A stretch of DNA of 21,090 bases from NCBI GenBank assembly GCA_031283505.1, contig JAITBO010000396.1, positions 1 to 21,090 on the forward strand, given 5' to 3'. The stretch comes from Treponema sp. Lineage in GTDB: Bacteria; Spirochaetota; Spirochaetia; Treponematales; Breznakiellaceae. The first letter of the stretch is position 1. Every line of letters begins with the position of its first letter. The notes beneath the pieces are model-generated. The model did not search any database. It saw only the letters and a program-made list of their open reading frames with translations, and was not told the DNA's origin. Position numbers and translations under genes: made by a program. Positions 2 through 18,275 of the stretch are shown one piece after another.

Positions 2-2296
2 GCTGAAGGTAGTTATAAAAACATCACTGTTACAAATGGAGGTACGGCCTCTGTGTCGGTCCCGCTTGTCTTCAAAGCGGGGGCCGGAGACGGAACGCTT
101 AAGTTTACGGTAACAAGACCCGAAGGTATTGACTTAACCGACGCCCAGTTTACCCTTGCTCCTCTGCATAGCGGCGGGACCTCCTACGGCACGGATTGGC
201 TTAAAATTATGTATACCGGAGAAAAGAAGGTAACCCACTCAAGTAATGAAACTATCGCCTCCGGTTATTATCAGGCGACCGTTACCCTTTCCACCGCCGA
301 ACGTAAAGCGGTCAAGAGCGACATAGTACATATCGGCGCGGGGCAGACGACAACGCTGAACTGGACCTTTGCCGAAGCCGACTTTTCGACGATTGTTACG
401 GATATTTGGCTGTTGGGCGTGAACAATGAATGGCAGACCTATGGCGTGGCCAATAAATTGACCCAGACCGCCAACGGGACATTTGTCTGGGAAGGCGAGA
501 TGAGCCATGCGTACTTCCGTTTCAGCCTGGAACCCACTACCGGATGGCCTAATGATAAAGACAGGCCAAACCGGTTCCAGCCAGCCGGCAATGATGTGAC
601 CATCTCCTTTGATACGCCCGTTGATATGACCTACGTTCCAAAGAATACCGATCCAGTTACGGCGTGGAATTTGGGCGGGGCCGGTTATTATAAGTTTGTT
701 GTCGATCCCTACGAAAAGACCGTGGTAGTTACCAAGCCGGCGGCCGTTACGGGGGTCGTAATTAACGGCAGGAATGTTACCCTGAATAAAGGGACGTCTA
801 ATGCTTTTACCGCAGTGGTGAATGGACACAACACTCCCAGCCAGGCGGTTACCTGGAGTATTACCAGTGGCCATGTGGCCGGTATGGCGTTCAGCGGGAA
901 TACCTTAACCATTGATTCCGCAGAAACAGCGTCCACCTTAACTGTCCGCGCTACATCGACGGCGGATTTGACCAAATACGGTGAAATCACCGTTACGGTT
1001 CAGGAAGCCGCAGCCCCGGTAGTAACCAGTATTGTGGTAACCTCGGCGGGAAATGCCGCCGAAGTTTCCCGGTCTGGTACATTGCAATTTAGCAAAACCG
1101 TTACCGCCAGCAATGGCGCAACGGAAGATGTTACCTGGTCGGTAAGTGGAAAAGATAAAAACGGCGCCTCATACTCTTTTACCAGTTCGATTGATACAAA
1201 CGGTCTTTTAACCGTTGATGAGAATGAAGCCGCCGTTGATTTGGTAGTCCGGGCAACATCACGGGAATCGGGTTATACAAACATTTACGGCGAAGCGACT
1301 GTATTCGTGCGGAAATATAATGATATTTACGCGATAGGAGATGATTTTTCCAACGGATGGAATACCGCGACAAGTGGTTCCAAGATGACATATGACGGCC
1401 GTGGTGTTTACAAGTTGACGGACATTTTGTTGACCAAAGCTCACACTTTTAAATTCCGTGATAGTACTCCTACAGATTGGAATAATGGTAATTGGTTCCA
1501 TGCGGGAACAGCGACGGATGACGACAAAACAATCGGAGACAAATGGGTAGGAGTTCGTAATAGTTCCGGAGATAACAGTTGGAAGGTAACCCATGGCGGA
1601 AAGTACACCATTACTCTTAATACTGGCAGTATGGTTGTTGCTTTTGAGTCAACCAAGCAGGTTATTACCATTACCGGAGGGCCGTCCGCATTGGCTCCGG
1701 GAGAAAACGGAACATTTACCTACACAACAACGATAACCGGCGCCTCTGCCCCTGTTACATGGAATGTCTATGGTGATGGAGTTGATCGCCATGTCCCCCA
1801 GAACAACACAGATGTCTCTAATGGATTTTTGACTCTTGGCAGTGGTGAATGGATAGGGCACAAGTTATTTGTTACGGTGACAAGTTTGGGTGAAACTGTC
1901 GAAAGTAAGCAATATCCGGTATTGGCCGTACCGATTATTGACCCGGAGGTCTACATCGCAGGCGATATGAGTAACTGGAACGATGGTACAAAAATGGAGA
2001 GAGGTACTACTCCCGCAACCCTGCATCTGTTTACATGGGCAGGCTCTCTCTCAACTGATTGTTATTTCAGAATGTACCGCGGTCCCGGTATTTCGGGTAA
2101 TGATAAACCCTGGTTTACTCCTCCCACAGATGATGCCTATGGGATCAATTCGGGACATTGTATAAATCTATCTGTTGTTCGTTGGGACAATTCGGGAACT
2201 ACCAATAGAAACTGGAAAATAACACCCTGGGGAGATGGTCAGTATACCATCACTTTCAATGCGGCGGACAGGACGCTTGATGTAACCAAAAACTAA
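2..2296 (+). CDS. SusE/SusF-like carbohydrate-binding surface protein, 5' partial
   Basis: The frame is open from base 2 to the TAA at 2294-2296 (764 visible codons). The GTG at 53 is only an internal codon, because coding-like sequence continues upstream of it, so the true start, and probably a lipoprotein signal, lies outside the window. Approximate visible-residue layout: an N-terminal beta module (1-133); SusF-like module 1 (134-246); two Big_2-like Ig domains (247-440); SusF-like module 2 starting DIYAIGDDFSNGW (440-544); another Ig-like domain (545-645); SusF-like module 3 starting VYIAGDMSNWNDG (646-764). The repeated pattern of I/VxGDxSNW start, aromatic-rich middle and YTITxN...xxVTK end is what SusE/SusF and related starch-binding modules look like. 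The next gene is an alpha-amylase, so binding of starch or maltodextrin at the cell surface is the likely role. The modules are called by eye; the exact ligand is inferred. Confidence 0.75.
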   Translation, partial: AEGSYKNITVTNGGTASVSVPLVFKAGAGDGTLKFTVTRPEGIDLTDAQFTLAPLHSGGTSYGTDWLKIMYTGEKKVTHSSNETIASGYYQATVTLSTAERKAVKSDIVHIGAGQTTTLNWTFAEADFSTIVTDIWLLGVNNEWQTYGVANKLTQTANGTFVWEGEMSHAYFRFSLEPTTGWPNDKDRPNRFQPAGNDVTISFDTPVDMTYVPKNTDPVTAWNLGGAGYYKFVVDPYEKTVVVTKPAAVTGVVINGRNVTLNKGTSNAFTAVVNGHNTPSQAVTWSITSGHVAGMAFSGNTLTIDSAETASTLTVRATSTADLTKYGEITVTVQEAAAPVVTSIVVTSAGNAAEVSRSGTLQFSKTVTASNGATEDVTWSVSGKDKNGASYSFTSSIDTNGLLTVDENEAAVDLVVRATSRESGYTNIYGEATVFVRKYNDIYAIGDDFSNGWNTATSGSKMTYDGRGVYKLTDILLTKAHTFKFRDSTPTDWNNGNWFHAGTATDDDKTIGDKWVGVRNSSGDNSWKVTHGGKYTITLNTGSMVVAFESTKQVITITGGPSALAPGENGTFTYTTTITGASAPVTWNVYGDGVDRHVPQNNTDVSNGFLTLGSGEWIGHKLFVTVTSLGETVESKQYPVLAVPIIDPEVYIAGDMSNWNDGTKMERGTTPATLHLFTWAGSLSTDCYFRMYRGPGISGNDKPWFTPPTDDAYGINSGHCINLSVVRWDNSGTTNRNWKITPWGDGQYTITFNAADRTLDVTKN

Positions 2297-2308
2297 ACGA
2301 AACACAGC

Positions 2309-2340
2309 GAATCCCTCTTCTCTTCGGAGAAGAGGGTTCG
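2309..2340 (+). promoter_or_regulatory. Intercistronic hairpin with TTCG tetraloop
   Basis: A perfect 10-bp stem (2313-2322 with 2327-2336) closes on a C(TTCG)G tetraloop, an exceptionally stable RNA loop. There is no T-tract after it, so it is not a standard intrinsic terminator. It lies between the binding protein stop and the amylase ribosome site. It could stabilise a 3' end after processing or set different amounts of the two proteins. The role is inferred; the structure is direct. Confidence 0.75.
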
Positions 2341-2382
2341 TAATAGCGCCATGTAGGATTTTTAAAAAAAGGGAGAACATTA

Positions 2383-4170
2383 TTGAAAAAACGAGTTTTG
2401 TTGACAATCTTGGCCGCCGCCGTCTTGACGGCGGCCTGTACAATTCAGCCGGAACCACCGGCCACGGTCCCCGCCCTGGGCGGCAGGAGCGAGGGAACCT
2501 GGTACGAGATATTCACCGGGTCTTTCGCCGACAGTAACGGCGACGGTATCGGGGACCTCAAGGGGATAGAACTCAAGCTGGACTACCTTAACGACAGTAA
2601 TACTGCCAAGCACCGGTACAACATGGAACATGACGGGGTATGCAACGAGAGCCTCCACGTAGACGGCATCTGGCTTACCCCGGTCATGCCGAGCCCCAGC
2701 TATCACAAATACGACACCAAGGACTACAAGGACATAGATCCCCAGTTCGGGACTTTGGAGGATTTTAACCATCTCTTAAAGGCGTGTCATGACCGGGGGA
2801 TCAAAGTCATCCTGGACCTGGTGATGAACCATTCGTCCCAGGACCACCTCTGGTTTCAGGAAGCGTTAAAGGAAGTCCGCTCCGGAAAACCCGGACGGTA
2901 CGCTTCGTACTATAATTTTTACTACGGGAAGCTGCCGCCCCAGAACGAAACCGTTGAATACGCCTATGAACGGGATGAAAACCTTAATATAAAAGGAAAA
3001 AAATATATCAGCGCCCGGTACTATAAGCACTGGGGCAGGGCGGCGGAAAACGCCTGGTGGGAAGGCTCCTTTTGGACTGGTATGCCCGACTTTAATTGGG
3101 ACAGCCAGGCTTTGCGGGAAGAATTCAAGGAAATCATAGAATTCTGGCTTACCGCCGGGCTTGACGGTTTTCGGCTGGACGCTACCAGTTGGCCCTACGA
3201 TCTCTACGGCCTGGGCCAAATGCAGAACGCCTATAACGGCGTTAATGTGGACGAAAAAAATATAGAACTCTGGGCATGGTTTAACGATTACTGCCACAGC
3301 GTAAACGATGATGTGTACCTGGTAGGGGAGTGCTGGAAAGGAGAGGACACCATCGCCAATTACTACCGTTCGGGTATGAACTACTTCGCCTTTGGGTTCT
3401 CCGACTTGGGGACTGTTCCCTGGGGAGTAAACGGTCACGGTACGGACTGGACCAACGCCCTTGTCTCCTGGGAGCGGAAAATAAAAATCCGCAACCCTCG
3501 GGCAGTGTCCGCAGTGTTCCTGTCTAACCACGACAAGAGCCGCAGCGCATGGATCTGGGACAGCGATTCCTGGTGGGCCCACCGCAAGCGGAAATTCGGC
3601 GCTTCCCTGTACCTCATGTCTCCGGGGACGCCCTTCATCTATTACGGTGAGGAAATCGGCCTTGCGGATCACGATGCCAACGGCGTTTACGAAGACTACA
3701 ATTACCGGGGGCCCATGTGGTGGTCCAACACCGATCACTCCCTTACGCCCAACCCGCCGGAAAAAATGCAGTGGACCTATCAGGCGTCCCTGTACAACAA
3801 TGGCGTTGAAGAACAGCTCAAGGACCAAGATTCCCTCCTGCGGCATTACATCCGGGTCATCAACCTTAAAAAACGCTGGCCCTGGCTTGCCTATGGATAT
3901 AAGATAGAAGCCCTTAACGTAAGCGATTCCCGGCTTTCCGCCTACCGGGTGGTAAATCCGGAGAACACCGCTCAGAGCGTAGTAATAGTGCATAGCACTT
4001 CTCCGTATGACGACATCAACATTAATTTTGCCGCCCTGGGCTTTAGAAAAACTGTCGAAGTTACGTATAGCGGACTTTCCGCCTTTACTTCCGATATTTA
4101 TCAGGGAGAAGCCGGCGCTGGTTACGATAAGCTGCCGGGTTATTCAACCTTTGTTTTTCAGGAATATTGA
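2383..4170 (+). CDS. GH13 alpha-amylase family lipoprotein
   Basis: A secreted glycoside hydrolase family 13 enzyme expected to cleave alpha-1,4-glucosidic bonds of starch or maltodextrin. The TTG start at 2383 follows GGGAG at 2371-2375 with a 7-base spacer. A lipobox LTAAC puts the lipidated Cys at residue 19. GH13 signatures are all present: a calcium-site-like DSNGDGIGDL; region I DLVMNH (145-150); region II GFRLDATSW with nucleophile Asp266; region III LVGECW with acid/base Glu316; region IV SNHDKS with Asp384. A short C-terminal beta domain follows the barrel. At 595 residues with all three catalytic acids, it should be active. The gap to the next gene is only 10 bp. The GH13 subfamily, and alpha-amylase versus alpha-glucosidase or neopullulanase specificity, cannot be decided from this reading. 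Confidence 0.93.
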   Translation: MKKRVLLTILAAAVLTAACTIQPEPPATVPALGGRSEGTWYEIFTGSFADSNGDGIGDLKGIELKLDYLNDSNTAKHRYNMEHDGVCNESLHVDGIWLTPVMPSPSYHKYDTKDYKDIDPQFGTLEDFNHLLKACHDRGIKVILDLVMNHSSQDHLWFQEALKEVRSGKPGRYASYYNFYYGKLPPQNETVEYAYERDENLNIKGKKYISARYYKHWGRAAENAWWEGSFWTGMPDFNWDSQALREEFKEIIEFWLTAGLDGFRLDATSWPYDLYGLGQMQNAYNGVNVDEKNIELWAWFNDYCHSVNDDVYLVGECWKGEDTIANYYRSGMNYFAFGFSDLGTVPWGVNGHGTDWTNALVSWERKIKIRNPRAVSAVFLSNHDKSRSAWIWDSDSWWAHRKRKFGASLYLMSPGTPFIYYGEEIGLADHDANGVYEDYNYRGPMWWSNTDHSLTPNPPEKMQWTYQASLYNNGVEEQLKDQDSLLRHYIRVINLKKRWPWLAYGYKIEALNVSDSRLSAYRVVNPENTAQSVVIVHSTSPYDDININFAALGFRKTVEVTYSGLSAFTSDIYQGEAGAGYDKLPGYSTFVFQEY

Positions 4171-4180
4171 GGGGGAAGCC

Positions 4181-5359
4181 GTGAAAAAAAAGTATGACTG
4201 TACGCTGGTTTTCGCCGCGTTGTTTCTGTCCCTTCTTTCCTGCAAACAGCCGGAGGGCGCGGTCCGGGAAACCGAAGTCTATAATCCGGATATATTCGGC
4301 TGGAGAACCGCTTCCTGGGGCCCCTTTACGGTAACCGATTCGGTAAAAGCCTTTGCCTATGGCGGCGGTGTGTACGTGGCGGTGGGGATCCACGGGGTTG
4401 TCGCCTATTCTTATGACGGCGATATTTGGGAACGGGCAAAGAAAGCGCCGGACCCGGCCTCCGGGGATCCTGTTACGGAACCTTTTAAGCTGGCAAACGG
4501 CGGCAATGCTGATTTTAACGCTGTCGCCTTTGGTGACGGGGTCTTTATCGCCGTGGCGGACGGCGGCCATTTTGCCTATTCCCGGGACGGCATATACTGG
4601 ACCGGAAAACACGGGGTAACCGGATTTGGCAGTGAAAACATCAACGGCATAGCCTACGGTAGAACCCCTGCCGGACTGGGATGTTTTGTGGCGGTGGGAA
4701 ACGGCACCAATGGCGGCGGGAATATCTTCGCCGCCTTTTCATCCGGTCCCGAATCCTGGAGCGGCGGCAAGCCCGCTGGTTTTTCCGCCGTAAAAGATGT
4801 TACCTTTGGTAACGGTAAATTCTACGCTGCCGGTGATGACGGCTGGATGGGGTGGGCCGTCCCCACTATTTCTTCCGTAACTCTTACCCCGGCAAACGAC
4901 TGGGATTGGCATCCCCGCCAATGGACTTTCAGAGCCCAGACGGGGACCTTTACCCCCTACGTAAAAAAAATAGCCTTTGGCGAATATGGCCGGGGGATTC
5001 CGGGGCTTGGCGTCGTGTTTAACGAATGGGGCGGTAAGCGTATTGCTGTTTGCGCGGCAAACCAGTTTGAACCGGGTAATTCCAATGCCTGGGATTCCGA
5101 TATTGACGCCGGATTTTTCGGCAGTAATACTATCAGTAGTATTGTCTGGTCTTCCTGGAATGGCGGCGTATGGATGGCCGCCGGGACAAGCGCCATGATC
5201 GGGTACTGGCCCGGTTCCGATCCGGCGGACACCGCCGAACGGTACTGGCGGGCGCTGTCTTTTGCCGAATTCCGCTGGTGGGAAATCTCGGTCCTTGCCG
5301 CCCTTAACGGCAGATACTTTGCCGGCAGCGTGGGCGGAAAAATAGGATACAGCAAATGA
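4181..5359 (+). CDS. Lipoprotein with seven-bladed Asp-box-like beta-propeller
   Basis: The chosen start is GTG 4181, preceded by AGGGGG and a 5-base spacer. It gives a signal with lipobox LLSC directly at the N-terminus; the longer in-frame reading from 4007 would overlap the amylase and bury the signal. The protein is 392 residues. From about residue 50, I count seven repeats of 40-60 residues resembling aYGxGxFVAVGxxGxxxYSxDGxxW, for example AFGDGVFIAVADGGHFAYSRDG. The SxDGxxW ends resemble BNR/Asp-box turns, as in sialidase-like and YCF48/HCF136-like propellers, but no sialidase catalytic residues were recognised. Blades 4-6 carry longer Trp-rich insertions. It lies between an amylase and more propeller genes, overlapping the next gene by 4 bp (ATGA). 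A role in glycan binding or surface-complex scaffolding is inferred; the function is unknown. Confidence 0.85.
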   Translation: MKKKYDCTLVFAALFLSLLSCKQPEGAVRETEVYNPDIFGWRTASWGPFTVTDSVKAFAYGGGVYVAVGIHGVVAYSYDGDIWERAKKAPDPASGDPVTEPFKLANGGNADFNAVAFGDGVFIAVADGGHFAYSRDGIYWTGKHGVTGFGSENINGIAYGRTPAGLGCFVAVGNGTNGGGNIFAAFSSGPESWSGGKPAGFSAVKDVTFGNGKFYAAGDDGWMGWAVPTISSVTLTPANDWDWHPRQWTFRAQTGTFTPYVKKIAFGEYGRGIPGLGVVFNEWGGKRIAVCAANQFEPGNSNAWDSDIDAGFFGSNTISSIVWSSWNGGVWMAAGTSAMIGYWPGSDPADTAERYWRALSFAEFRWWEISVLAALNGRYFAGSVGGKIGYSK

Positions 5360-6381
5360 AAAAAATAATTTTTCTGTTCAGTGTTTCTGTTTTGACGTTT
5401 TTTTCCTGTTACGACATGAATACCGCCCCGTATCCGAATTTGGCCGGTTTCCATAACGCTTCCAATTCTCCCTTTTCAAACGAGGAGATACGGGGAATTG
5501 CCGGCAGCGGAGAACAGGCTGTGGCGGTAAGTGGGGACAAGATCGCCTATTCTGATGACAACGGCTTGACTTGGAAAGACCCGATCATCCTTGACAGTCC
5601 CACGGGCCTTAGCCTGAACTGCGTTATCTGGGGCGAAGGGTATTACCTTACAGGCGGGACGGGTGGAAGCGCCGCATGGTCGGAAGACGGCAAAACCTGG
5701 TACGCCGGGATCATAGGCCCCATGAATCCCAAAAACATCAACGCTGTCGCCGCAGGCAGCCTCCAGGACCGGAAGGTGTTTGTGGCCGCCGGTGACGACG
5801 GCAGGATCGCCTTTGCGGTGGATCATCCCCGAGGGCCCTGGCGTATGGTGAGCCTTAGTCCCTTTGGAGAAGTAGATAATTATGGGGAAGATATTTTTGC
5901 CCTTGCCTGGGGATACGTGGGGGGCAACGAGAAATCCGGCGTCTTTGTAGCCGCCGGGGAAAACGGTAAAATCGCCTTTATGCGGGATCTGTCGGGAAAG
6001 TGGTATGCCTCCTCTCAGGCCGGTACAACCAATACATTCAGGAGCGTTGCCTTTGGTAACGACCGTTTTGTCGCGGTGGGCGATGTGGGTACCATCATGA
6101 TCTCTTTTGATCCCGCCTCTTTTGTTTGGGAACGTGTAGAAGATACGTACATAGAAGCTCGTCCCCTCTATAGTGTTTCTTTCGATCCTGCCATTAAGCA
6201 GTTTGTAGCCATAGGCGTTAACTCCCTTATTGCCTACTCAAGTACCGGCGGTAGTTGGAGCGTCGGGTCATTCCAAAATCAGGGACGTATTAATGCCGGC
6301 GGGGATCTCTCGGCGGTTGCCTGTACGAACAGCCGGATAATTCTTGGCTGTAAAGACGGTTTACTCTTCTACAGTAATTAG
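5356..6381 (+). CDS. Lipoprotein with seven-bladed Asp-box-like beta-propeller (second of three)
   Basis: The ATG at 5356 overlaps the preceding stop (ATGA), a sign of translational coupling; an AGGA lies at about 5351. The 341-residue product begins MKKIIFLFSV and has a lipobox-like FFSC with Cys at residue 18. The mature part consists almost entirely of seven propeller repeats of about 40-47 residues (roughly 33-341). They include KIAYSDDNGLTW, a full S-x-D-x-G-x-x-W Asp box, and AFGNDRFVAVGDVG. The last repeat ends at the C-terminus with GLLFYSN, like its neighbours, so the repeat register is shared among all three genes. No catalytic signature is recognised. It is probably a paralogue of the genes on both sides, made by tandem duplication and divergence. 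Membrane anchoring is predicted from the lipobox; the ligand is unknown. Confidence 0.85.
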   Translation: MKKIIFLFSVSVLTFFSCYDMNTAPYPNLAGFHNASNSPFSNEEIRGIAGSGEQAVAVSGDKIAYSDDNGLTWKDPIILDSPTGLSLNCVIWGEGYYLTGGTGGSAAWSEDGKTWYAGIIGPMNPKNINAVAAGSLQDRKVFVAAGDDGRIAFAVDHPRGPWRMVSLSPFGEVDNYGEDIFALAWGYVGGNEKSGVFVAAGENGKIAFMRDLSGKWYASSQAGTTNTFRSVAFGNDRFVAVGDVGTIMISFDPASFVWERVEDTYIEARPLYSVSFDPAIKQFVAIGVNSLIAYSSTGGSWSVGSFQNQGRINAGGDLSAVACTNSRIILGCKDGLLFYSN

Positions 6382-6394
6382 GAGCATGGATATA

Positions 6395-9067
6395 ATGATA
6401 AAAAAAAATACGGGCTGTAAACTCTGTCTGATATTGCCTTTTGCCGCGCTTTTGGCGGCCTGCCTACAGCCGGCAAACAATGTCCCAACCCTGGAATATA
6501 TTCCCCAGGGCTTGAAAGATACATCTGCGAATTTTACCGTGTCTGAGGGCGGCAATATGATTATCGTCGCCTTTGAAGGCGGCGCTTTTCAAAGCGGCGT
6601 CAGCGTCGCGGATTTCTCCCTCAGGGTGGTAAACGGAGCCGCCATCCCTGTAAACGTGCCGGTGGTGGACAGTGAAACCCAGGCGGTCCTGCCTTTTGAT
6701 ACCGCCCTGTCCGCCGGTAATTACAACCTGACCATAAAGGCAAACGCCTTCAACAGGAATCCCAGCAGGATAACGGTAAAGGCCGTAAAGGGGGACGGGA
6801 CATGGTCCGCGGCTGTGGAAAACACCGGGTTCAACCGTAACCCAATCTATGCCATTGCATACGGCGCGGGAAAGTACCTTGCGGGCGGCGGCGGCGGTAA
6901 TTTGTCCTATTCCCGGGACGGCGACAGTTGGACTAACATTCCCCCTGGTCCCGCCGTTACGCAAAATAAATTTTCCCAGGACGGGGAAGTCAGGAGCATA
7001 GCCTACGGCAACGGTACGTTTTATGCTGTGGGGGAAAAAGGGCAGGTGAGTTATTCAAGCGATGGACAGAGTTGGACAGGCTATACCGAAAGTATTTTTG
7101 ACAGTTCCCTTTCTATTAATGCGGTAATTTACGGTGGAGGGAAATTTCTTGCCGCAGGAGAGGGCGGCAGAATGATGTATATGCCCGATGACAGCGGCTG
7201 GACCAGGGTATCCGAAAATCATTTTGGCGGCGATACAATACGGGCCCTTGCCTGGGGACGCACCGCTTCGGGAGAAAACAGGTATGTTGCCGGCGGTGAG
7301 GACAACAGCCAGGGAGCGACCGGCAAAGGAAAACTGTGCTGGTCCGGGGACGGCATTACCTGGACCTATTCCATGAATATTGCTAAAAGGGTGAACGGTC
7401 TTGGATACGGGAACGGCGTTTTTGTCGCGGTATCGGACGATGGAAAAATATACCGTTCCGGCAACGGAGGAACGGTTTGGGAGGAAAAATACACGGTTCC
7501 CGGCGAGACGGGCCTTTTAAGCGTTGTTTACGGGAGCGGGACCTTTATCGCCGCAGGTCATAACGGCGTTGCCCTGGTATCCAGAGACGATGGCAATACC
7601 TGGATGTCTATGACTGTTTCCTTCTCCACCAGCGAGCAGATTTCCTGCGTCGCCTATTCCGGCGGACGCTTTATTCTGGCCGGGCACCCCTATCCAGCCG
7701 AGGAAGGCCAAGCCGCCGGGAACAGCAGGATGACGGCGGCCTGGTTCAAACCCGGCGTAATACCCGCCCCCGAACTTCCGGTTGACCTTGTTTCCGGTTT
7801 GTTTACCCTAACAGCGGAAGACAACCAGGTCACGGTTACCCTTACAGGTGGCGCTTTCAGCGAACTCCCGGCGGCGGGAGATTTTGATCTGACAAATGCC
7901 GGTTTTACAGGCGGGACTATTGAGCGGGACCGGCAGGATCCACTGAAAGTTGTCTTTAAGGGAATCGCCGTAACCGCGCCGGGAAGCGGTAAAACCATCA
8001 CTGTCAAGGCAAGCGCCTTGTCCGCTAAGGCCGGTTCCGTAGCGGTAACGGTACAGAAGAATCTGGCCTGGACGGTAGTACAGGATACGAAATTCGACGC
8101 TTCCAACATACGCAGCATTGCCTACGGCAACGGCAAATATGTCGCGGTCGGAGCGGGAAAGATAGCAGTGTCTTCCGACGGCGTTGCCTGGACGGAAGTC
8201 CCTTCTCCCGCAGACGGCAACAAGTGGGCGGAATCCGGTAATTACGTGGATTTCCAGGGCATTGTTTATGGCGGCGGAAAGTTTATCGCCGTAGGCTACT
8301 GGCTCAACGGCGACAACGGAAACGGCTGGGGTGTCGCGGCCATTTCAACGGATGGGACCACCTGGACGATAAAAGACAAAATCCTTACAACCGGCGCCGA
8401 CAGCGCCCATATTTACGCAATCGCCTGGACCGGCGTTAATTTTGTCGCTGCCGGCAGGTGGGGTAGATCGGCAACTTCAACGGATGGGACCACCTGGACG
8501 ATGCGGCAAATTACCGGTTTTAACTGGCTGGACAATCAGAATTGGTGGGAGAACGCCTACGCCATAGCTGCGGACGGAACGGGAAAGGTTGTCACCGGGG
8601 GTTCCAATGGCAAACTTGCGTATTCAAACGATCACGGCGTTACGTGGACCTGGCTTGCGGACAAATTCTTTAATGATAAACCGGTCAGGACCATTGTTCA
8701 CTTCAACGGCGCTTTTATTGCCGCCGGTGACGGAGGAAACATGAAAAAGGCGGCTTCTGCCGGTACGGATTGGCAAAATAGCGGCAACTGGCAGGGTGTA
8801 GACAGCAAATTCGGGGAAGCCGGCATCCTTGCCCTTGCTTCAGGAGGCGGTAAAATCATTGCCGTTGGTCACAACGGCTCCATGTCCGAATCCGCCGATG
8901 GTTCGGCATGGACCGCCCTGAGTACGGGCATAGGTTGGGGACAAAGCGGCTTTACCGGAGAAGAACAGATCGCCTGCATCGTGTACGGCGGCGGAAAATT
9001 TGTTATCGGTGGCAATGCCTATAGTGAAAAAGGAAACGCAAGTAAATTTGCGTACAGTAATCAATAA
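6395..9067 (+). CDS. Large lipoprotein: two Ig-like plus seven-bladed propeller units in tandem
   Basis: The preferred start is ATG 6395: AGGAG at 6380-6384 is 10 bases upstream, while ATG 6386 would be only 1 base away and the TTG at 6344 lies inside the previous gene. The result is 890 residues. Lipobox LLAAC follows a hydrophobic stretch. The order is: Ig-like module 1 (about 30-130), propeller A (about 132-455), Ig-like module 2 (about 457-553, SGLFTLTAEDNQVTVTLTGG), propeller B (about 555-890). Each propeller shows seven repeats of the form IAYGNGKYVAVG...SxDGxxWT. The protein is thus an internal duplication of an Ig-plus-propeller unit. Blades 2 and 3 of propeller B share a 27-base identical stretch (8344-8370 and 8476-8502), which points to recent blade duplication. 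No enzyme motif was recognised. The barrel gene starts 11 bp downstream. Confidence 0.85.
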   Translation: MIKKNTGCKLCLILPFAALLAACLQPANNVPTLEYIPQGLKDTSANFTVSEGGNMIIVAFEGGAFQSGVSVADFSLRVVNGAAIPVNVPVVDSETQAVLPFDTALSAGNYNLTIKANAFNRNPSRITVKAVKGDGTWSAAVENTGFNRNPIYAIAYGAGKYLAGGGGGNLSYSRDGDSWTNIPPGPAVTQNKFSQDGEVRSIAYGNGTFYAVGEKGQVSYSSDGQSWTGYTESIFDSSLSINAVIYGGGKFLAAGEGGRMMYMPDDSGWTRVSENHFGGDTIRALAWGRTASGENRYVAGGEDNSQGATGKGKLCWSGDGITWTYSMNIAKRVNGLGYGNGVFVAVSDDGKIYRSGNGGTVWEEKYTVPGETGLLSVVYGSGTFIAAGHNGVALVSRDDGNTWMSMTVSFSTSEQISCVAYSGGRFILAGHPYPAEEGQAAGNSRMTAAWFKPGVIPAPELPVDLVSGLFTLTAEDNQVTVTLTGGAFSELPAAGDFDLTNAGFTGGTIERDRQDPLKVVFKGIAVTAPGSGKTITVKASALSAKAGSVAVTVQKNLAWTVVQDTKFDASNIRSIAYGNGKYVAVGAGKIAVSSDGVAWTEVPSPADGNKWAESGNYVDFQGIVYGGGKFIAVGYWLNGDNGNGWGVAAISTDGTTWTIKDKILTTGADSAHIYAIAWTGVNFVAAGRWGRSATSTDGTTWTMRQITGFNWLDNQNWWENAYAIAADGTGKVVTGGSNGKLAYSNDHGVTWTWLADKFFNDKPVRTIVHFNGAFIAAGDGGNMKKAASAGTDWQNSGNWQGVDSKFGEAGILALASGGGKIIAVGHNGSMSESADGSAWTALSTGIGWGQSGFTGEEQIACIVYGGGKFVIGGNAYSEKGNASKFAYSNQ
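8344..8502 (+). repeat. Recent one-blade duplication inside propeller B
   Basis: Bases 8344-8370 and 8476-8502 are identical over 27 nt, both coding for a STDGTTWT turn. The offset is 132 bp, which is 44 codons and matches one blade. The rest of the two blades has diverged. Confidence 0.8.
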
Positions 9068-9078
9068 GGAGAATCATT

Positions 9079-10365
9079 ATGAAAAAACAAATCGTATTCC
9101 TGTTTATAACGACGGCGTTACTGTTTATGCCGGTTCTGTTCCTTTCGGCCCTGGACTTGGGCAGTGGTTTCAGTTTGGGCGGCGGGGTAAAAACCGGGCT
9201 TGAAATAAAAAATTCCGACTATTCCGGCGAGCTGGAAGGCATAGGCCACGCCAAAGAATATCCCATGACCCTCTACTTTGCCTCCAGGGACAACGAAGCC
9301 TACAATGGCGAAGGCTGGTTCAACCTGAACTACAGTGGAAACGCCATGGGGATAAATTGGGGCGCCGGTCTCGGTGGCTGGGCCCACGGAGACCTTAAAA
9401 ATTACAGTGACATCTTTCACCTTGGAGATCATTACCTGTGGGCTTATTTCTTTGACGACCAGTTCCGCATCATCGGAGGTCAAGGCGGAGGGACCCCCAT
9501 AAATACCGGCGGCTGGCTCAACGCCGACTGGCTCAGTTACAACGGGCTCCGGGTTTTTTATGTTGCGCCCTTTGGACTTTCTTTAGGCATAAATTTTGTA
9601 GACCCCGGCCCGGACGGCATTAAACCGGTAGAATATCTTACTACTATAATGGCAGGTGTCAAATACGAATACCAGGGCATTTGGGGGAGCCTTATGTTTG
9701 ACAATAACCCCATCTACGATGACAGCGACGCAAATTACGACGGCGGTCTCCACGGCTATCGGCCGCTTATCGGTCAGGCCGGTAACCTTGGGATAGGCGT
9801 TGGCATGAACGATATCTACGCCGGAGCGGGCATGATCGCCCTGGATATGATCGTCGCAAATATGGGAGAGGATCATATCACCAGCTCCGTGAACCCTGAC
9901 TACAAGTATTCTCCGGTAGAAATTACCGCCGCGATTAAAACCGGGTATCCCTGGCTTGACGGCAAGCTCTACACCGAATTTAAGGCCAAATATTTGGTCA
10001 AACGGGGGGATAACGCCGATTTTACCGGACCAGCGGTATGGGGCCTTCTTGTCTTTGAACCCTATATCAGCTACGAGATACTTCCGGGTCTCAAGGCCGA
10101 ACTCTCTATAGCCCCGAATTTCTACATTAACAGCTATTATCTGGCCCTTGACGTTACCCCCAATGCCTCGGGCGTCCGATATACCGCCGGGCAGACTGCG
10201 CCTATCGCAGCCGTGGGCGAATTTGCCTCCACATACGCCTGTTCCGTCAATCCCAAGTTAAGCGTCAACTTTGGCGGCGCGACAATAGTCCTGGGCTATG
10301 AAGGGGTCTATTCCCGTGACCATGCGGAGAATACGGTATATGTAGATATGCGCTGGGCCTTCTAG
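9079..10365 (+). CDS. Outer-membrane beta-barrel protein, porin-like
   Basis: ATG 9079 follows AAGGAGA with good spacing. The N-terminus MKKQIVFLFITTALLF continues into a hydrophobic core and a likely signal peptidase I site after LSA (residue 24). There is no lipobox Cys, unlike the upstream genes. The 404-residue mature part has alternating polar and aromatic strands rich in Gly, Tyr and Trp with acidic loops, and ends ...VYVDMRWAF. A terminal aromatic residue with alternating hydrophobics is the usual signal for barrel insertion by BamA. No enzyme, TonB-box or plug domain was seen, so it is not a SusC-type transporter. As last gene of the starch-related run, a diffusion channel for maltodextrins is a reasonable guess. 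It could instead be a structural outer-membrane protein. The substrate is inferred from context only. Confidence 0.8.
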   Translation: MKKQIVFLFITTALLFMPVLFLSALDLGSGFSLGGGVKTGLEIKNSDYSGELEGIGHAKEYPMTLYFASRDNEAYNGEGWFNLNYSGNAMGINWGAGLGGWAHGDLKNYSDIFHLGDHYLWAYFFDDQFRIIGGQGGGTPINTGGWLNADWLSYNGLRVFYVAPFGLSLGINFVDPGPDGIKPVEYLTTIMAGVKYEYQGIWGSLMFDNNPIYDDSDANYDGGLHGYRPLIGQAGNLGIGVGMNDIYAGAGMIALDMIVANMGEDHITSSVNPDYKYSPVEITAAIKTGYPWLDGKLYTEFKAKYLVKRGDNADFTGPAVWGLLVFEPYISYEILPGLKAELSIAPNFYINSYYLALDVTPNASGVRYTAGQTAPIAAVGEFASTYACSVNPKLSVNFGGATIVLGYEGVYSRDHAENTVYVDMRWAF

Positions 10366-10884: not shown

Positions 10885-12219
10885 TTGAAACGGGTAATTG
10901 TATCATTACTCATCGGATTGACGTTGACCGGTTTGGCGGCAGCTCAGAGCGCCGGCATGAGGAGTTTCCGTCAGATTGGCGCCGCGACTGCTGAACTGAA
11001 TACGGATCAGCTTGTGGCTTCTCATCCCAGTTTGTCTATGGGGACCCAGTTAAAGGTAACCAACACCGCAAATGGGAAGGAAGCTATCGTTACAGTAACG
11101 GGCCGTATACCCGCTTCGGGGACACGGGTTATCGATCTCTCCAGAGGCGCTTCGGCGCGGCTGGAAATGAACGCATCGGGTACTACGCCGGTGACTATTG
11201 AGGTCGTGCGTAATACGGAACTGGCGGCAGCGCCACCGCCACCGCCACCGCCACCGCCGGAGCCTGAACCGGTAAAGGAAGAACCTGTTGTCGTTGCTCG
11301 TGAAGAACCTGTCCGTGAAGCGCCCAAAGAAACCATGGAAGAAAAGCCCAGACAGGAATCCGCCTCCGCCCCTGCGCCTATCACCATATATAATACTATT
11401 ACGGTAGCCCCAAAAACTCCTGCGGAGCCCGTGCCTGTGGCCGTTCCCGTTTCTGCTGTTCCGGCTCCTGCCCAGACCATCCCGGTAATCGTTGCGCCCG
11501 TGTTTAAGGCTGTTCCGGCCCCGGTTATTGTAACTGCCCCGGTTTACAGTCAGGCGGCGGTTCCTGCCTGTCCTCCCGCCGTCCCGGTTAAGGTTCTGGT
11601 AACTCCGGTTCAACCTCAGGTTCAGGCTCCGTGTCCTCCTGCACAGGCTTCGGTAGTTTATTCCGCTTCTTCCCAGGTAGTGTATAGCCAGGCTCCGGCA
11701 TACCGTCAGGTACAGCCCCAACAAGTATATGTCCAGCCGCAGATTCAGGCGCCCGCCGGGTATACTCAGCCACAGGCTTCTTACCAGCAGCCTCCGGCTC
11801 AACCATCCCAGATGCCGGTGACCGTTTATACAACCTCGTCTTCGACAGCTCAGGCTCCGGTAACAGTCTACACGGCCACCGTTCCTGCGGCCCAGGCTTC
11901 GGCAACCATTTATACGGCTCCTTCACAGACCCCCGGCGGGGCCGTGCCTTCTGGCGTCGGCGCGGCAATTAAGCCCCGCATGCCGGATCCGGCAAGTTCC
12001 GGGGTCTACCGGGTGCAAGTGGGTTCCTACGCGGATCCCCAAAACGCCCAGGTAGTTGCCGAATCCCTGGTTCGGGCAGGCCTGAGCCCCGCCTATGAAC
12101 AGTATGGCCAGGTTTGGCGGGTGGTCATTCCCGGGATCAGCGCCCGGCAATTATCCGCCGTGTCCCAACAGCTTGGCGCGTTGGGTATAGGCGAAGTCTG
12201 GATACGCCAGGAAGGATAA
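10885..12219 (+). CDS. RlpA-like DPBB/SPOR protein, probable non-catalytic peptidoglycan binder
   Basis: A TTG start at 10885 follows the purine-rich GAGAGGGG (10871-10878). A signal peptide ends at about AAA/Q21. Residues 35-107 match the double-psi beta-barrel of RlpA: ASHPSLSMGTQLKVTN and RVIDLSRGASARLEM align with the family's AAH-LPFG-VRVTN and IDLS-AA-LGM. A Pro/Ala/Gln-rich linker with nine consecutive prolines (from 117) runs to about 370. A C-terminal SPOR domain (374-444, starting YRVQVGSYADPQNAQ) should bind denuded septal glycan. RlpA is a septal lytic transglycosylase in Pseudomonas. Here His47 is kept, but the Asp of the usual VxDRGP motif is replaced (VTGRIP, Gly73), and the usual N-terminal GxASWYG segment is missing. 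It is therefore probably a binding or structural protein of the periplasm. It appears to be a single-gene unit ending in a terminator. Confidence 0.85.
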   Translation: MKRVIVSLLIGLTLTGLAAAQSAGMRSFRQIGAATAELNTDQLVASHPSLSMGTQLKVTNTANGKEAIVTVTGRIPASGTRVIDLSRGASARLEMNASGTTPVTIEVVRNTELAAAPPPPPPPPPEPEPVKEEPVVVAREEPVREAPKETMEEKPRQESASAPAPITIYNTITVAPKTPAEPVPVAVPVSAVPAPAQTIPVIVAPVFKAVPAPVIVTAPVYSQAAVPACPPAVPVKVLVTPVQPQVQAPCPPAQASVVYSASSQVVYSQAPAYRQVQPQQVYVQPQIQAPAGYTQPQASYQQPPAQPSQMPVTVYTTSSSTAQAPVTVYTATVPAAQASATIYTAPSQTPGGAVPSGVGAAIKPRMPDPASSGVYRVQVGSYADPQNAQVVAESLVRAGLSPAYEQYGQVWRVVIPGISARQLSAVSQQLGALGIGEVWIRQEG

Positions 12220-12418: not shown

Positions 12419-12531
12419 ACTGCATATTAAAAGACGGCGGGTTGCGGCCATCCGTACTTTAACATGAATTTGGCGAACCCTGGCCGTGCCGGGGTAACTT
12501 TAGCGAAGCTTACAAGGAGATGGAGGTTAAA

Positions 12532-13347
12532 ATGGAAGGAAAGAAAATTGCCGCGGTGGTATTGGCGGCGCTGGTTTCGGTTTCGGTCGTGTTTGCCGGC
12601 GGCGGTAAACAGCAGGCCGGCGGCGGGCTGACCGGCAAAGCCGGGACGTTTTCGGTGGGCATGGAAATCGGGTATCCCCCCATGGAATATTACGGTCCCG
12701 ACGGCAAGACCCCTGTGGGCTTTGACGTGGAACTGGCTAAAGCCCTTGGGACGAAGCTGGGGCTCAAGGTTGAATTTATCGACACCGCCTGGGATGGGAT
12801 ATTCGCCGGGGTGGATAAGGGCGATTATGACTGTATCATCTCGTCCGTCACCTATACCGAAGAAAGGGCGGCCAACTACAACTTCACCAAGCCTTATGTG
12901 GCAAATTCCCAGCTTCTTGTGGTACGCAAAAATTCCGCCGTCAAACCAAGGAGCCTGGATGAAGTACCGGGACTCAGGCTCACCTATCAGGCCGAGACGA
13001 CTTCCGACACCCTGGCCACCGAGTGGATTGCGAAGACCGGAGCCAAGGTTGAGACTTTTGAATATGACAAGGTGATGAACTGTTTTGACGAACTCAACCT
13101 GAACCGCGTCGATGTTATCCTGGTAGACAGCGTGGTTGCCGCCGAATACCTTTCCCGCCCGAACAATCCCTACGAGATGAGCGCCGAGGTAAGTAACGAC
13201 GAAGTTCTGGCTATCTGCGTCAGGAAGGGGAATCAGGCTCTGACCGATACTTTGAATCAGGCTCTGGACGCCCTCTGGGAGGATGGTACTTTAAAGCGGA
13301 TTTCCCAAAGTATTTTCGGCGCCGATGTAGTTTCCAGCGTTAGATAA
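12532..13347 (+). CDS. Amino-acid ABC transporter substrate-binding protein
   Basis: A periplasmic solute-binding protein of the polar amino-acid family (SBP_bac_3; HisJ/GlnH/FliY-like). ATG 12532 is chosen because GGAGG (12522-12526) lies 5 bases upstream; the in-frame ATG at 12520 would have no spacer. The signal segment ends VFA/GGGKQQAGGG, with no lipobox Cys, so it looks like a signal peptidase I substrate rather than a typical lipoprotein. Family landmarks include FSVGMEIGYPPMEYY, VGFDVELAKALGTKLGL, AWDGIFAGVDKGDYDCI, TYTEERAANYNFTKPY and a C-terminal LWEDGTLKRISQSIFG. The length (271 residues) is normal. The permease and ATPase follow, after an internal terminator that should keep binding protein in excess. 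The substrate cannot be read reliably; cystine is possible given the facing cysK. Confidence 0.92.
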   Translation: MEGKKIAAVVLAALVSVSVVFAGGGKQQAGGGLTGKAGTFSVGMEIGYPPMEYYGPDGKTPVGFDVELAKALGTKLGLKVEFIDTAWDGIFAGVDKGDYDCIISSVTYTEERAANYNFTKPYVANSQLLVVRKNSAVKPRSLDEVPGLRLTYQAETTSDTLATEWIAKTGAKVETFEYDKVMNCFDELNLNRVDVILVDSVVAAEYLSRPNNPYEMSAEVSNDEVLAICVRKGNQALTDTLNQALDALWEDGTLKRISQSIFGADVVSSVR

Positions 13348-13354
13348 GGGGGAT

Positions 13355-13382
13355 ACGGGCCGCCGGACGCGGTCCGTTTTTT
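13355..13382 (+). terminator. Internal terminator/attenuator between binding protein and permease
   Basis: The arms 13355-13363 and 13369-13377 form a 9-bp GC-rich stem (one G-U pair) with a 5-base loop, followed by TTTTT at 13378-13382. It sits 8 bases after the binding-protein stop and just ahead of the permease ribosome site. Partial read-through would make much more binding protein than membrane components, a common pattern in ABC operons. Confidence 0.85.
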
Positions 13383-13398
13383 CTCACAGGAGGGGAGC

Positions 13399-14058
13399 AT
13401 GACTTCCATACAAAAAATCATCGCCTGGATTCCCCAGCTTTTGGACGGCGCACGGATAACCGTATCTCTAACCATCCTGGCGGTTTCTGCGGGCCTGTTT
13501 TTAAGTCTTTTTCTTGCCCTGGGCAAGATGTCCAAAAACGCCGTCGTCAATAAAATTTGCAGCGCCTACGTGTTTTTTTTCCGGGGGACCCCCCTCCTGA
13601 TGCAGCTTTACTTTATTTATTACGGCCTGCCGGAGATAAGCCGGGTGTTGACCATCAACAGCCGTTTTAGCGCGGCCTTTATCGCCTTTGGCCTTAATTC
13701 GGCGGCCTACTGCGCGGAGATCATCAGGGCGGCGATTCAGAGCATAGACAAGGGCCAGTTCGAGGCGTCCCGCGCCCTGGGTCTTTCTTACGCTCAGGCC
13801 ATGCGCCTGGTGATCGTTCCCCAGTCCATCAGGCGGCTCATCCCGCCGGTCGGCAACGAGTTCATCATGGTCCTTAAAGATGCCTCTTTGGTGTCCATCA
13901 TCGCCCTTTCGGACATTACCAAGGTTACCCGGTCCATTTCCTCATCCACCGCTTCGGCCCTGGTCTATATCCCGGCGATGATCCTGTATCTCATCATAAC
14001 CGCCATATTTTCTCTTATCTTCCACAGGCTGGAAAAAAAGTATTCGGTTTACCAATAG
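13399..14058 (+). CDS. Amino-acid ABC transporter permease
   Basis: An inner-membrane permease of the His/Glu/Gln/Arg/opine three-gene family. ATG 13399 follows AGGAGGGG with short spacing. It has 219 residues, typical of the family, with about five hydrophobic segments, beginning with [40 protein letters not shown] is the conserved region seen in this family. The EAA loop that docks to the ATPase runs from residue 122 ([20 protein letters not shown]). It may act as a homodimer, because only one permease gene is present. The ATPase gene starts 11 bp after its stop, so the two are certainly co-transcribed. Confidence 0.93.
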
Positions 14059-14069
14059 GGAGCGCATCG

Positions 14070-14828
14070 ATGTCCATGATCAAGACGGTTGACGTATGTA
14101 AATCCTTCGGTTCCCTGGAAGTGCTAAAAGATGTTTCCATTACGGTGGAACAGCGGGAAGTGATCTGCATCATCGGCCCTTCGGGGGCGGGAAAATCAAC
14201 ATTTCTGCGTTCCCTGAACCGGCTGGAGCGCATAGACAGCGGTAAAATTTATATCGAAGACAAGCTGCTTTTCGACTGCGTTAACGGGGTGAATACCGTA
14301 AAGATGCACGCCCATGAGAGGAACACCGCTCTCCTTGAGGTGGGTATGGTATTCCAGAGCTTTAATCTGTTTCCCCACAAGACGGTGATTGAAAATGTAA
14401 GTCTGGCCCCGGTTCATGTCCGCAAATTTTCCCCGGAAGAAGCCCGGGAAAAGGCAAAGGTTCTTCTGGACCGGGTCGGCCTGGCCGACAAGGTCAACGC
14501 CTATCCGTCCCAGCTTTCCGGGGGGCAACAACAGCGGGTGGCCATAGCCCGCGCCCTGGCCATGGAGCCCAAGATCATGCTCTTTGACGAGCCGACTTCG
14601 GCACTGGATCCGGAACTTGTGGGGGAGGTCCTGAGCGTCATGAAAAGCCTTGCCCAGGTGGGGATGACTATGCTGGTGGTAACCCACGAGATGGGCTTTG
14701 CCAGAGAAGCGGCGGACAAGGTGGTGTTCATGTTCGCCGGTTCGATCCTTGAGACCGCCTCTCCGGACCGTATGTTCAGTAACCCGGAAAACAGCCGCAC
14801 CCGTCAGTTCCTGCAAAGCGTGTTGTAG
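14070..14828 (+). CDS. Amino-acid ABC transporter ATP-binding protein
   Basis: The energy-coupling subunit of the upstream transporter (GlnQ/HisP-like). ATG 14070 follows AGGGAG with a 7-base spacer. Walker [10 protein letters not shown] is at 36-44, signature LSGGQQQR at 149-156, and Walker B MLFDEP has Asp173 and catalytic Glu174. A D-loop SALDP and switch His in VVTHEMGFA follow. The Q-loop is [13 protein letters not shown]. Between Walker A and the Q-loop is a segment around [16 protein letters not shown] that is somewhat longer than in GlnQ; similar insertions occur in HisP-type proteins. All catalytic residues are intact. The gene ends 47 bp from the convergent cysK stop, and no terminator is visible in that gap. 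Confidence 0.95.
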
Positions 14829-14875
14829 CCGGGCCTTTCAGGTGTGGTTTGTTGCTACTGTTACGGCGCGGAGGT

Positions 14876-15796
14876 TTATTCCTCCCACAGCCAGGTAGAA
14901 AGGTAGCGTTCGCCCGTGTCCGGAAGGACAGCCACAATGGTCTTGCCTTTGTTTTCAGGCCGCCGGGATACGGTAAGGGCCGCTTCCAGAACGGAGCCCG
15001 AGGATATTCCTACCAGGATGCCTTCTTCTTTGGCGAGACGCCGCGCCACTGCGCCGGCTTTTACCTCATCGGTAAGGTAGATCTCGTCTATCAAGTCTTT
15101 GTCGTATACCTGGGGAACAAAGCCCGCCCCTATGCCCTGGATTTTGTGTGGGCCGGGCTGTCCGCCCGAAAGGACCGGTGAGGCCGAGGGTTCCACGGCG
15201 ATGAGCTTGATCTCCGGTTTTTTGGCTTTAAGAAACTTGCCCGCGCCGCTGATGGTGCCGCCCGTCCCGACCCCGCCTACAAGGATGTCGATTTCGCCTT
15301 TGGTGTCTTCCCAGATTTCGGGCCCCGTGGTCTTCTCGTGAATGGCGGGATTGGCAGGGTTGTTAAACTGCTGGGGGATGAAAGAATTGGGGATGGAAGC
15401 CGCGAGTTCTTCCGCCTTGGCGATGGCGCCTTTCATGCCCTTGGCCCCTTCGGTCAGTTCCAGCTCCGCGCCCAGGGCCTTGAGCAGCTTGCGGCGCTCA
15501 ATGCTCATGGTTTCCGGCATGGTCAGGATAATGCGGTAACCCTTGACTGCCGCCACAAAAGCAAGGCCTATGCCGGTATTGCCGCTGGTGGGTTCGATGA
15601 TGACCGTCCCCTTCTTAATCTTGCCGTCTTTTTCCGCCGTTTCTATCAGGGCGAGGGCTATACGGTCCTTGACGCTGGAAAAGGGGTTGAAGCTTTCCAG
15701 CTTGGCGTACACGACGGCCACCCCGTCATTCAGCTTGTTGATTTTTACCAGCGGGGTATTCCCGATGAGATCCGTAATCCTGTCTACTTTTGCCAT
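14876..15796 (-). CDS. cysK: Cysteine synthase (O-acetylserine sulfhydrylase)
   Basis: A PLP enzyme that makes cysteine from O-acetylserine and sulfide in the cytosol. The 306-residue length fits CysK. Near-identical family motifs are present: [19 protein letters not shown] with PLP lysine Lys43, TSGNTG (70-75) binding the substrate carboxylate, and GGVGTGGT (174-181) holding the PLP phosphate. GIGAGFVP (221-228) and GISSG (262-266) with the Ser that contacts the PLP ring nitrogen are also present. ATG at 15796-15794 has a GGAGG 7 bases upstream. It has its own consensus promoter and a leader of about 30 bases, so it is a separate unit facing the ABC operon. CysK versus CysM cannot be fully separated by eye, but the motifs favour CysK. 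Confidence 0.95.
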
Positions 15797-18263: not shown

Positions 18264-18275
18264 GGAGGATTTATA

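What the first reader, a model, noticed from the sequence alone, without database searches (positions are those of the whole stretch)
2..10365. A candidate Sus-like starch system in a spirochete, built from propeller lipoproteins
Six same-strand genes combine three SusE/SusF-like binding modules, a GH13 lipoprotein with intact catalytic acids, three propeller lipoproteins and an outer-membrane barrel. SusC/SusD are absent from the window. In Bacteroidetes, Sus loci pair binding lipoproteins with a TonB-dependent SusC; here propellers and a porin-like barrel occupy the corresponding positions. The gene order and motifs are seen directly; shared function in alpha-glucan capture, cleavage and uptake is inferred.
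Basis: partly seen in the sequence, partly recalled or inferred. Interest (0 to 1): 0.85.

Follow-up and report, generated by a model that had tools for sequence, protein, structure and literature searches.

The report
Spirochete alpha-glucan locus with propeller lipoproteins
Gut spirochetes carry a conserved gene set that probably grabs and cuts starch-like sugars at the cell surface and feeds them through a simple pore, using propeller-shaped proteins where the well-known Bacteroides starch system uses different parts.

Summary
In 195 related genomes, orthologs of PR1, PR2 and the GH13 occur in exactly the same 8 genomes, all among the 13 with the barrel. The whole order lies on one contig in five loci besides the window, one with PR3 cut short. 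SusD gives no match in 195.
Best reading: an alpha-glucan capture, cleavage and uptake locus of Treponema-type spirochetes, Sus-like in logic but with a porin and propellers instead of SusC/SusD. Against a fixed machine: the barrel stands alone in three genomes, module genes are adjacent in only two of the eight, and related propellers are widespread. Substrate, surface exposure and complex formation are inferred.

The parts
2..2296 (+). Gene 1 (BIG): glucan-binding protein candidate, 5' end outside the window; Big_2/Ig-like parts and three SusE/SusF-like modules. The five best listed relatives that are longer are 853-902 aa; P0218 starts with a lipobox.
401..739 (+). Module 1 (residues 134-246)
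   Evidence: iterated HMM; profile A6 hits BT3088 and SusF
1322..1651 (+). Module 2 (residues 441-550)
1946..2290 (+). Module 3 (residues 649-763)
2383..4170 (+). GH13 alpha-amylase-family lipoprotein (TTG start, Cys19; D266, E316, D384)
   Evidence: PF00128 5.7e-74; PDB relatives: alpha-amylases about 4e-83, SusG 1e-45; invariant catalytic columns
4181..5359 (+). PR1, propeller-like lipoprotein (GTG start)
   Evidence: orthologs similar to PR3; ortholog in 8 of 195 genomes, the GH13 ones; fold not modelled
5356..6381 (+). PR2, seven-bladed propeller lipoprotein
6395..9067 (+). PR3, lipoprotein with two propeller-like halves (nine Asp-box-like motifs)
   Evidence: DUF6242 1.5e-10, KIB1-4 and sortilin hits (the last two under their cut-offs); motifs; Ycf48 profile hit 4.6e-5; fold not modelled
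9079..10365 (+). BAR, outer-membrane porin of about 18 strands, no plug domain found

Best explanation
This is an alpha-glucan utilisation locus of Treponema-type gut spirochetes. The module protein holds starch, glycogen or a dextran-like glucan at the cell surface. The GH13 lipoprotein cuts it into oligosaccharides. The three propeller lipoproteins sit with them, most likely on top of or next to the porin, as binding or guiding partners. The porin of about 18 strands lets the oligosaccharides diffuse into the periplasm without TonB, where a sugar ABC transporter and inner GH13/pullulanase enzymes finish the job. Shown: gene content, order, co-occurrence, module homology, and predicted folds of one propeller and the barrel. 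Inferred: surface exposure, a physical complex, the substrate, passive transport and the exact role of the propellers.
For: Orthologs in 195 genomes of one family: barrel 13, PR1 8, PR2 8, GH13 8 (one a contig-edge fragment); the three sets of 8 are identical and lie within the 13 (tests). GH13-PR1-PR2-PR3-BAR on one contig in L005, L008 (GH13 cut by the contig edge), L009, L011 and L013 (PR3 reduced to a 138-aa ORF that matches the PR3 N-terminus at 1.9e-22), besides the window. Module genes lie directly upstream of the GH13 genes in L103 and L105; one 1207-aa protein in L105 matches both gene 1 and PR3. The module profile matches SGBPdex and SusF; a module is fused to a GH13 in L091. In G002 (L002) PR3-BAR is followed by a solute-binding protein, two ABC permeases, a GH13 and a pullulanase. 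The barrel fold is that of substrate porins. SusD 0 of 195 with a positive Bacteroides control. Six propeller genes elsewhere lie upstream of TonB receptors, so the superfamily is found beside outer-membrane transporters.
Against: The barrel stands without GH13/PR1/PR2 in L006, L007 and L010; L007 is a deletion that kept the barrel, and the tree places these beside full loci. In G004 the barrel lies on another contig and no PR3 was found in the stretches fetched. MalF/MalG/solute-binding relatives of G002's genes are beside the locus in 2 of 13 genomes (G002, G004) and not in the window (E up to 1e-8, only the stretches held). The modules are found in 5 of the 8 GH13 genomes and lie next to the locus in only two (G004, G011); in G005, G009 and G012 they are on other contigs. 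Foldseek's own first rows for the barrel are DcaP, PorB and AlgE with TM about 0.4-0.6, so the fold does not single out sugar porins. No experiment on any member. The co-occurrence tests ignore relatedness.
Confidence: 0.6

Rival explanations
1. The locus is for alpha-glucan binding and cleavage, but the propellers are scaffold or assembly factors (like the propeller BamI of the Bacteroidota BAM complex, or Ycf48 in photosystem II) and take no part in transport.
For: PR3 has a weak hit to NCBIfam BamI (29 bits against a cut-off of 370); profiles of PR2 and PR3 hit Ycf48 weakly (0.015 and 4.6e-5); BamI is a six-bladed propeller lipoprotein in an outer-membrane assembly complex (PMC12578637, passages).
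Against: Such propellers share a generic motif, so these hits are not specific. Orthologs of PR1 and PR2 follow the GH13 and are not found in the three barrel-only genomes, so that barrel seems not to need them for assembly.
Confidence: 0.25
2. The substrate is another alpha-glucan such as dextran, glycogen or a microbial exopolysaccharide, not starch (a variant of the best explanation; the two are not exclusive).
For: The best PDB match of the modules is BT3088, labelled SGBPdex (1.6e-16), better than SusF (5.6e-6).
Against: The GH13 is closest by sequence to alpha-amylases, with SusG at row nine, and a pullulanase with CBM48 lies at the locus of G002.
Confidence: 0.3
3. Barrel and upstream genes are unrelated neighbours: a general porin that happens to follow a GH13-propeller operon.
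For: Barrel without the rest in L006, L007, L010; strong branches of the tree force at least two changes of this label.
Against: 11-nt spacing in the window; the same order in L005, L008, L009, L011 and L013, whose barrels are only 43-53% identical to the window's; all 8 GH13/PR genomes have the barrel (p 2.9e-11).
Confidence: 0.12

Closest known systems
Bacteroides Sus (SusC-SusG) and related PULs
   Same: SusE/SusF-type modules and a GH13 lipoprotein in one locus with an outer-membrane channel gene
   Different: No SusD match (0 of 195 genomes); the channel models as a porin without a plug; three propeller lipoproteins added
Propeller-lid uptake systems BtuBG and XusAB of Bacteroides (PMC10404256, PMC13142918; passages seen)
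   Same: Seven-bladed propeller lipoprotein that goes with an outer-membrane transport protein
   Different: There the partner is a TonB-dependent transporter for vitamin B12 or siderophores and a lid complex is solved; here a plugless porin, carbohydrate genes, and no complex shown
18-stranded substrate porins (maltoporin, sucrose porin, chitoporin, OprD/Occ)
   Different: No sequence relation found (0 PDB hits with the 52-sequence profile at E up to 1; no Pfam)
CAZyme clusters of termite-gut Spirochaetae (PMC7264248; passages and section 11 seen)
   Same: Reports alpha-glucan CAZyme clusters in Spirochaetae genomes, with carbohydrate transporter genes adjacent to several clusters, likened to Gram-positive PULs
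   Different: The text I saw names no module protein, propeller or outer-membrane barrel; its supplements were not seen

Membership tests
Bacteroidota SusCD-type PUL | SusD homolog | tested here: not met
   PF07980 in 0 of 195 genomes at E up to 0.001, Bacteroides control positive; none among nine window proteins. The genomes' completeness is not told.
Bacteroidota SusCD-type PUL | SusC-type TonB-dependent barrel with plug at the locus | tested here: not met
   Barrel has no Plug hit and models as a porin; Plug proteins exist in 177 of 195 genomes but none is in this operon
Bacteroidota SusCD-type PUL | SusE/SusF-type modules | tested here: met
   Profile hits SusF 4fe9 and BT3088; Pfam's SusF_SusE is not hit by the window; binding not tested
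Bacteroidota SusCD-type PUL | SusG-type surface GH13 lipoprotein | tested here: inconclusive
   GH13 domain, lipobox-like start and catalytic residues present; surface location not testable
18-stranded substrate porin | Porin barrel of about 18 strands without plug | tested here: met
18-stranded substrate porin | Sequence membership in a named porin family | tested here: not met
   No Pfam or NCBIfam hit up to E 0.1, no PDB hit with the profile
Propeller-lid lipoprotein (BtuG/XusB type) | Seven-bladed propeller lipoprotein | tested here: met
   PR2 model and lipobox-like start; PR1 and PR3 not modelled
Propeller-lid lipoprotein (BtuG/XusB type) | Encoded with a TonB-dependent transporter | tested here: not met
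   Here the partner gene is a porin; pairing with TonB receptors is seen for other propellers in six genomes
Propeller-lid lipoprotein (BtuG/XusB type) | Forms a lid complex with the barrel | not testable with these tools
   needs pull-down or structure

The most novel reading that the evidence does not exclude
Spirochetes evolved a third kind of outer-membrane glycan machine: propeller lipoproteins that cap or feed a TonB-free porin, together with SusF-type binders and a surface amylase, a utilisome driven by local cleavage and diffusion rather than by TonB. The same propeller superfamily sits beside TonB receptors elsewhere in these genomes, so propellers would be the spirochete counterpart of SusD in general.
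Probability: 0.25. Interest if true: 0.8.

Novelty: new variant of a known kind. Interest (0 to 1): 0.57.

Why it matters
How spirochetes bring polysaccharide fragments across their outer membrane is little described in what I could search. Here is a defined, conserved candidate locus with named parts and simple tests. If right, it would show SusE/SusF-type binders working outside Bacteroidota without SusCD, and propeller lipoproteins as recurring partners of outer-membrane channels.

Tried and rejected
A single-protein scan of genome contigs with the GH13 found no relative; the barrel alignment worked. Gene 1 alone gave only weak PDB hits that look unrelated (phage tail tube, ThreeFoil, capsid, a glucanase), and its RicinB Pfam hit is under the cut-off; both were set aside for the module-profile result. 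Equal contig lengths first suggested more syntenic pairs in metagenome contigs; for 3138 bases it proved a coincidence (G012's GH13 piece lies on a 3138-base contig, but its only barrel is on another contig), so equal lengths are not used as proof. A TonB receptor on the GH13 contig of G003 (L102) lies about 6 kb away with an opposite-strand gene between and was not counted. Promoter and terminator scans gave more hits than shuffles (19 against 10.8, 31 against 15.9) but nothing that defines the operon. The barrel tree has 3 of 11 inner branches starred and an unsettled bootstrap; only the starred nodes are used. Weak barrel paralogs (L027-L036) were only listed by ORF, not scanned for families. 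Acid and aromatic porins tie with sugar porins in the VIA list, so the fold does not settle the substrate.

Literature: in the rows listed by searches I saw no paper on a Sus-like starch system with propellers in Treponema. Most listings were capped (15 of 1,666 papers; 12 of 50; 10 of 32; 12 of 24; 12 of 17; 8 of 10); the library holds open-licence papers only, and one search was diluted by words that start with susc. So this is weak evidence of absence.

I lowered the main confidence from 0.62 to 0.60 because the module genes turned out to be adjacent in only two of the eight genomes.
Full report
What is there. The window is a 21090-base contig (the barrel's own row carries that contig length); no genome is held for it. 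Between 2 and 10365 six + strand genes follow each other closely (starts): gene 1 (open at the edge), a GH13, PR1, PR2, PR3 and a barrel. The GH13 and the three propellers start with lipoprotein-like signal peptides, the barrel with a plain one (read by eye). Gene 1 lacks its start; its relative P0218 (898 aa) begins with a lipobox.

Gene 1. An iterated HMM finds three related modules. A profile of eight such modules, three from the window and five from L103 and L105, hits two PDB sequences of BT3088 (SGBPdex; 1.6e-16 and 1.5e-15) and SusF (5.6e-6); the only other row at E up to 1 is an unrelated enzyme at 0.17. Pfam does not name the modules of the window SusF_SusE; a 637-aa relative in L105 hits that family at 3e-4, under the cut-off. 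So SusE/SusF-like is right as homology; binding is untested.

GH13. PF00128 at 5.7e-74. The closest PDB sequences are two alpha-amylases (about 4e-83); SusG is row nine (1e-45). The three catalytic acids are present and invariant in the 20-sequence alignment. NCBIfam gives 34 families, none of the 25 shown over its cut-off.

Relatives. A scan of genome contigs with the barrel alignment gave 76 candidate stretches, of which 13 encode a relative, in MAGs titled Treponema sp. or Spirochaetaceae bacterium. One title carries the code Th196, which occurs in a paper on termite-gut MAGs (PMC7024585, search listing only); that the others come from termites too is my recall of such codes. Of the 13: five have GH13-PR1-PR2-PR3-BAR on one contig (L005, L009, L011; L008 with the GH13 cut by the edge; L013 with PR3 reduced to 138 aa, a match to the PR3 N-terminus at 1.9e-22). 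L003 and L012 have PR1-PR2-PR3-BAR from the contig start (PR3 of L003 is 450 aa), with a GH13 at a contig end elsewhere in the genome. L002 has PR3-BAR and L001 has BAR at a contig edge. G004 has GH13-PR1-PR2 on one contig and the barrel near the edge of another, with no PR3 in the stretches fetched. L006 and L010 have the barrel alone. L007 keeps the upstream flank, about 100 bases of the GH13 end, a PR3 tail and the whole barrel: a deletion of the middle.

Co-occurrence. In 195 genomes of the family of G011: barrel ortholog 13 (E up to 6e-177; nine further matches, 4e-10 to 6e-6, in nine genomes of which one is a barrel genome); PR2 ortholog 8 (up to 4e-136; next 5e-27); PR1 ortholog 8 (up to 6.5e-64; next 1.7e-28); GH13 ortholog 7 (up to 2.6e-202; next 2.8e-152) plus an edge fragment in G008. 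The three sets of 8 are the same genomes and all are barrel genomes; Fisher p 2.2e-14 and 2.9e-11, or 4.2e-12 without the fragment. These tests treat genomes as independent, which they are not, and the thresholds were set after seeing the gaps. The modules occur in 9 of 195 genomes, 5 of them among the 8 (p 3e-6), but next to the locus only in G004 and G011.

Alpha-glucan context. G002: solute-binding protein, two permeases, GH13 and pullulanase (CBM48, PUD) after the barrel. G004: two module genes upstream of the GH13 and, divergent, a solute-binding protein and a permease 70% and 62% identical to those of G002. G011: two module genes and a second GH13 upstream; one module protein also matches PR3 over 358 residues. 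G012: a module fused to a GH13 (L091; SusG_C weak at 0.005). G150: three modules in a row in one 417-aa lipoprotein between a pullulanase and a GH13 lipoprotein, with MalF/MalG-like permeases, and no propeller or barrel hit in the 19 kb read. Relatives of G002's ABC genes lie beside the locus in 2 of 13 genomes and not in the window.

No Sus pair. SusD: 0 of 195, Bacteroides control positive. TonB plug: 177 of 195 genomes, but not in this operon.

Propellers in general. 61 of 195 genomes have a PR2-like match at E up to 1e-8, so the superfamily is broad. Outside the barrel genomes, of 80 propeller places and 136 plug places taken from the cut lists, six propellers lie upstream on the same strand within 5 kb of a plug; about 0.06 would be expected by chance with a flat genome size (noticed first, counted after). 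Between propeller and TonB receptor sits a protein with fn3 and 5'-nucleotidase C-terminal domains in the three loci scanned with Pfam (L096, L099, L101); L097, L098 and L100 have an ORF of like length there, not scanned. This parallels BtuG and XusB, propeller lids on TonB receptors in Bacteroides (passages of PMC10404256 and PMC13142918).

Mechanism. Capture by modules, cleavage by the GH13, passage of oligosaccharides through the porin with help of propellers, then ABC import. The first two steps rest on homology, the porin step on a predicted fold, the propeller role on position, co-occurrence and parallels only. The barrel-only genomes sit beside full loci in the tree (L006 with L003; L007 and L010 with L005 and L009). 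That suggests loss of the rest with the barrel kept, as a porin of wider use would allow, and weakens the idea of an obligate complex.

Known or new. Alpha-glucan CAZyme clusters in termite-gut Spirochaetae are in print (PMC7264248, section 11 seen). The outer-membrane part with propellers and porin was not seen in the capped listings named under Tried and rejected. I rate it a new variant of a known kind.

Noticed in passing
L096, L097, L098, L099, L100, L101: Propeller lipoprotein upstream of a TonB-dependent receptor on the same strand in six other genomes (about 0.06 expected), with an fn3 plus 5'-nucleotidase C-terminal protein between them in the three loci scanned.
   Followed up: partly
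L007:8611-11298: Deletion relic: upstream flank, GH13 end, PR3 tail and intact barrel, aligned with L005 and L009.
   Followed up: yes
L107 (G150): Another alpha-glucan locus without propeller hits: MalF/MalG-like permeases, three GH13 lipoproteins, a pullulanase and a three-module 417-aa lipoprotein.
   Followed up: partly
L105:6587-10210: 1207-aa protein that matches gene 1 of the window and also PR3, a possible module-propeller fusion.
   Followed up: partly
window 10885-12219: RlpA/DPBB plus SPOR domain protein downstream of the locus.
   Followed up: no
window 12520-15796: Three + strand ORFs that look like an amino-acid ABC transporter (binding protein, permease, ATPase) and a - strand ORF that looks like cysteine synthase, read from the translations only.
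   Followed up: no
window 17274-21089: Big_2 protein with a lipobox-like start, followed by a large fn3 plus VWA protein running off the window.
   Followed up: no
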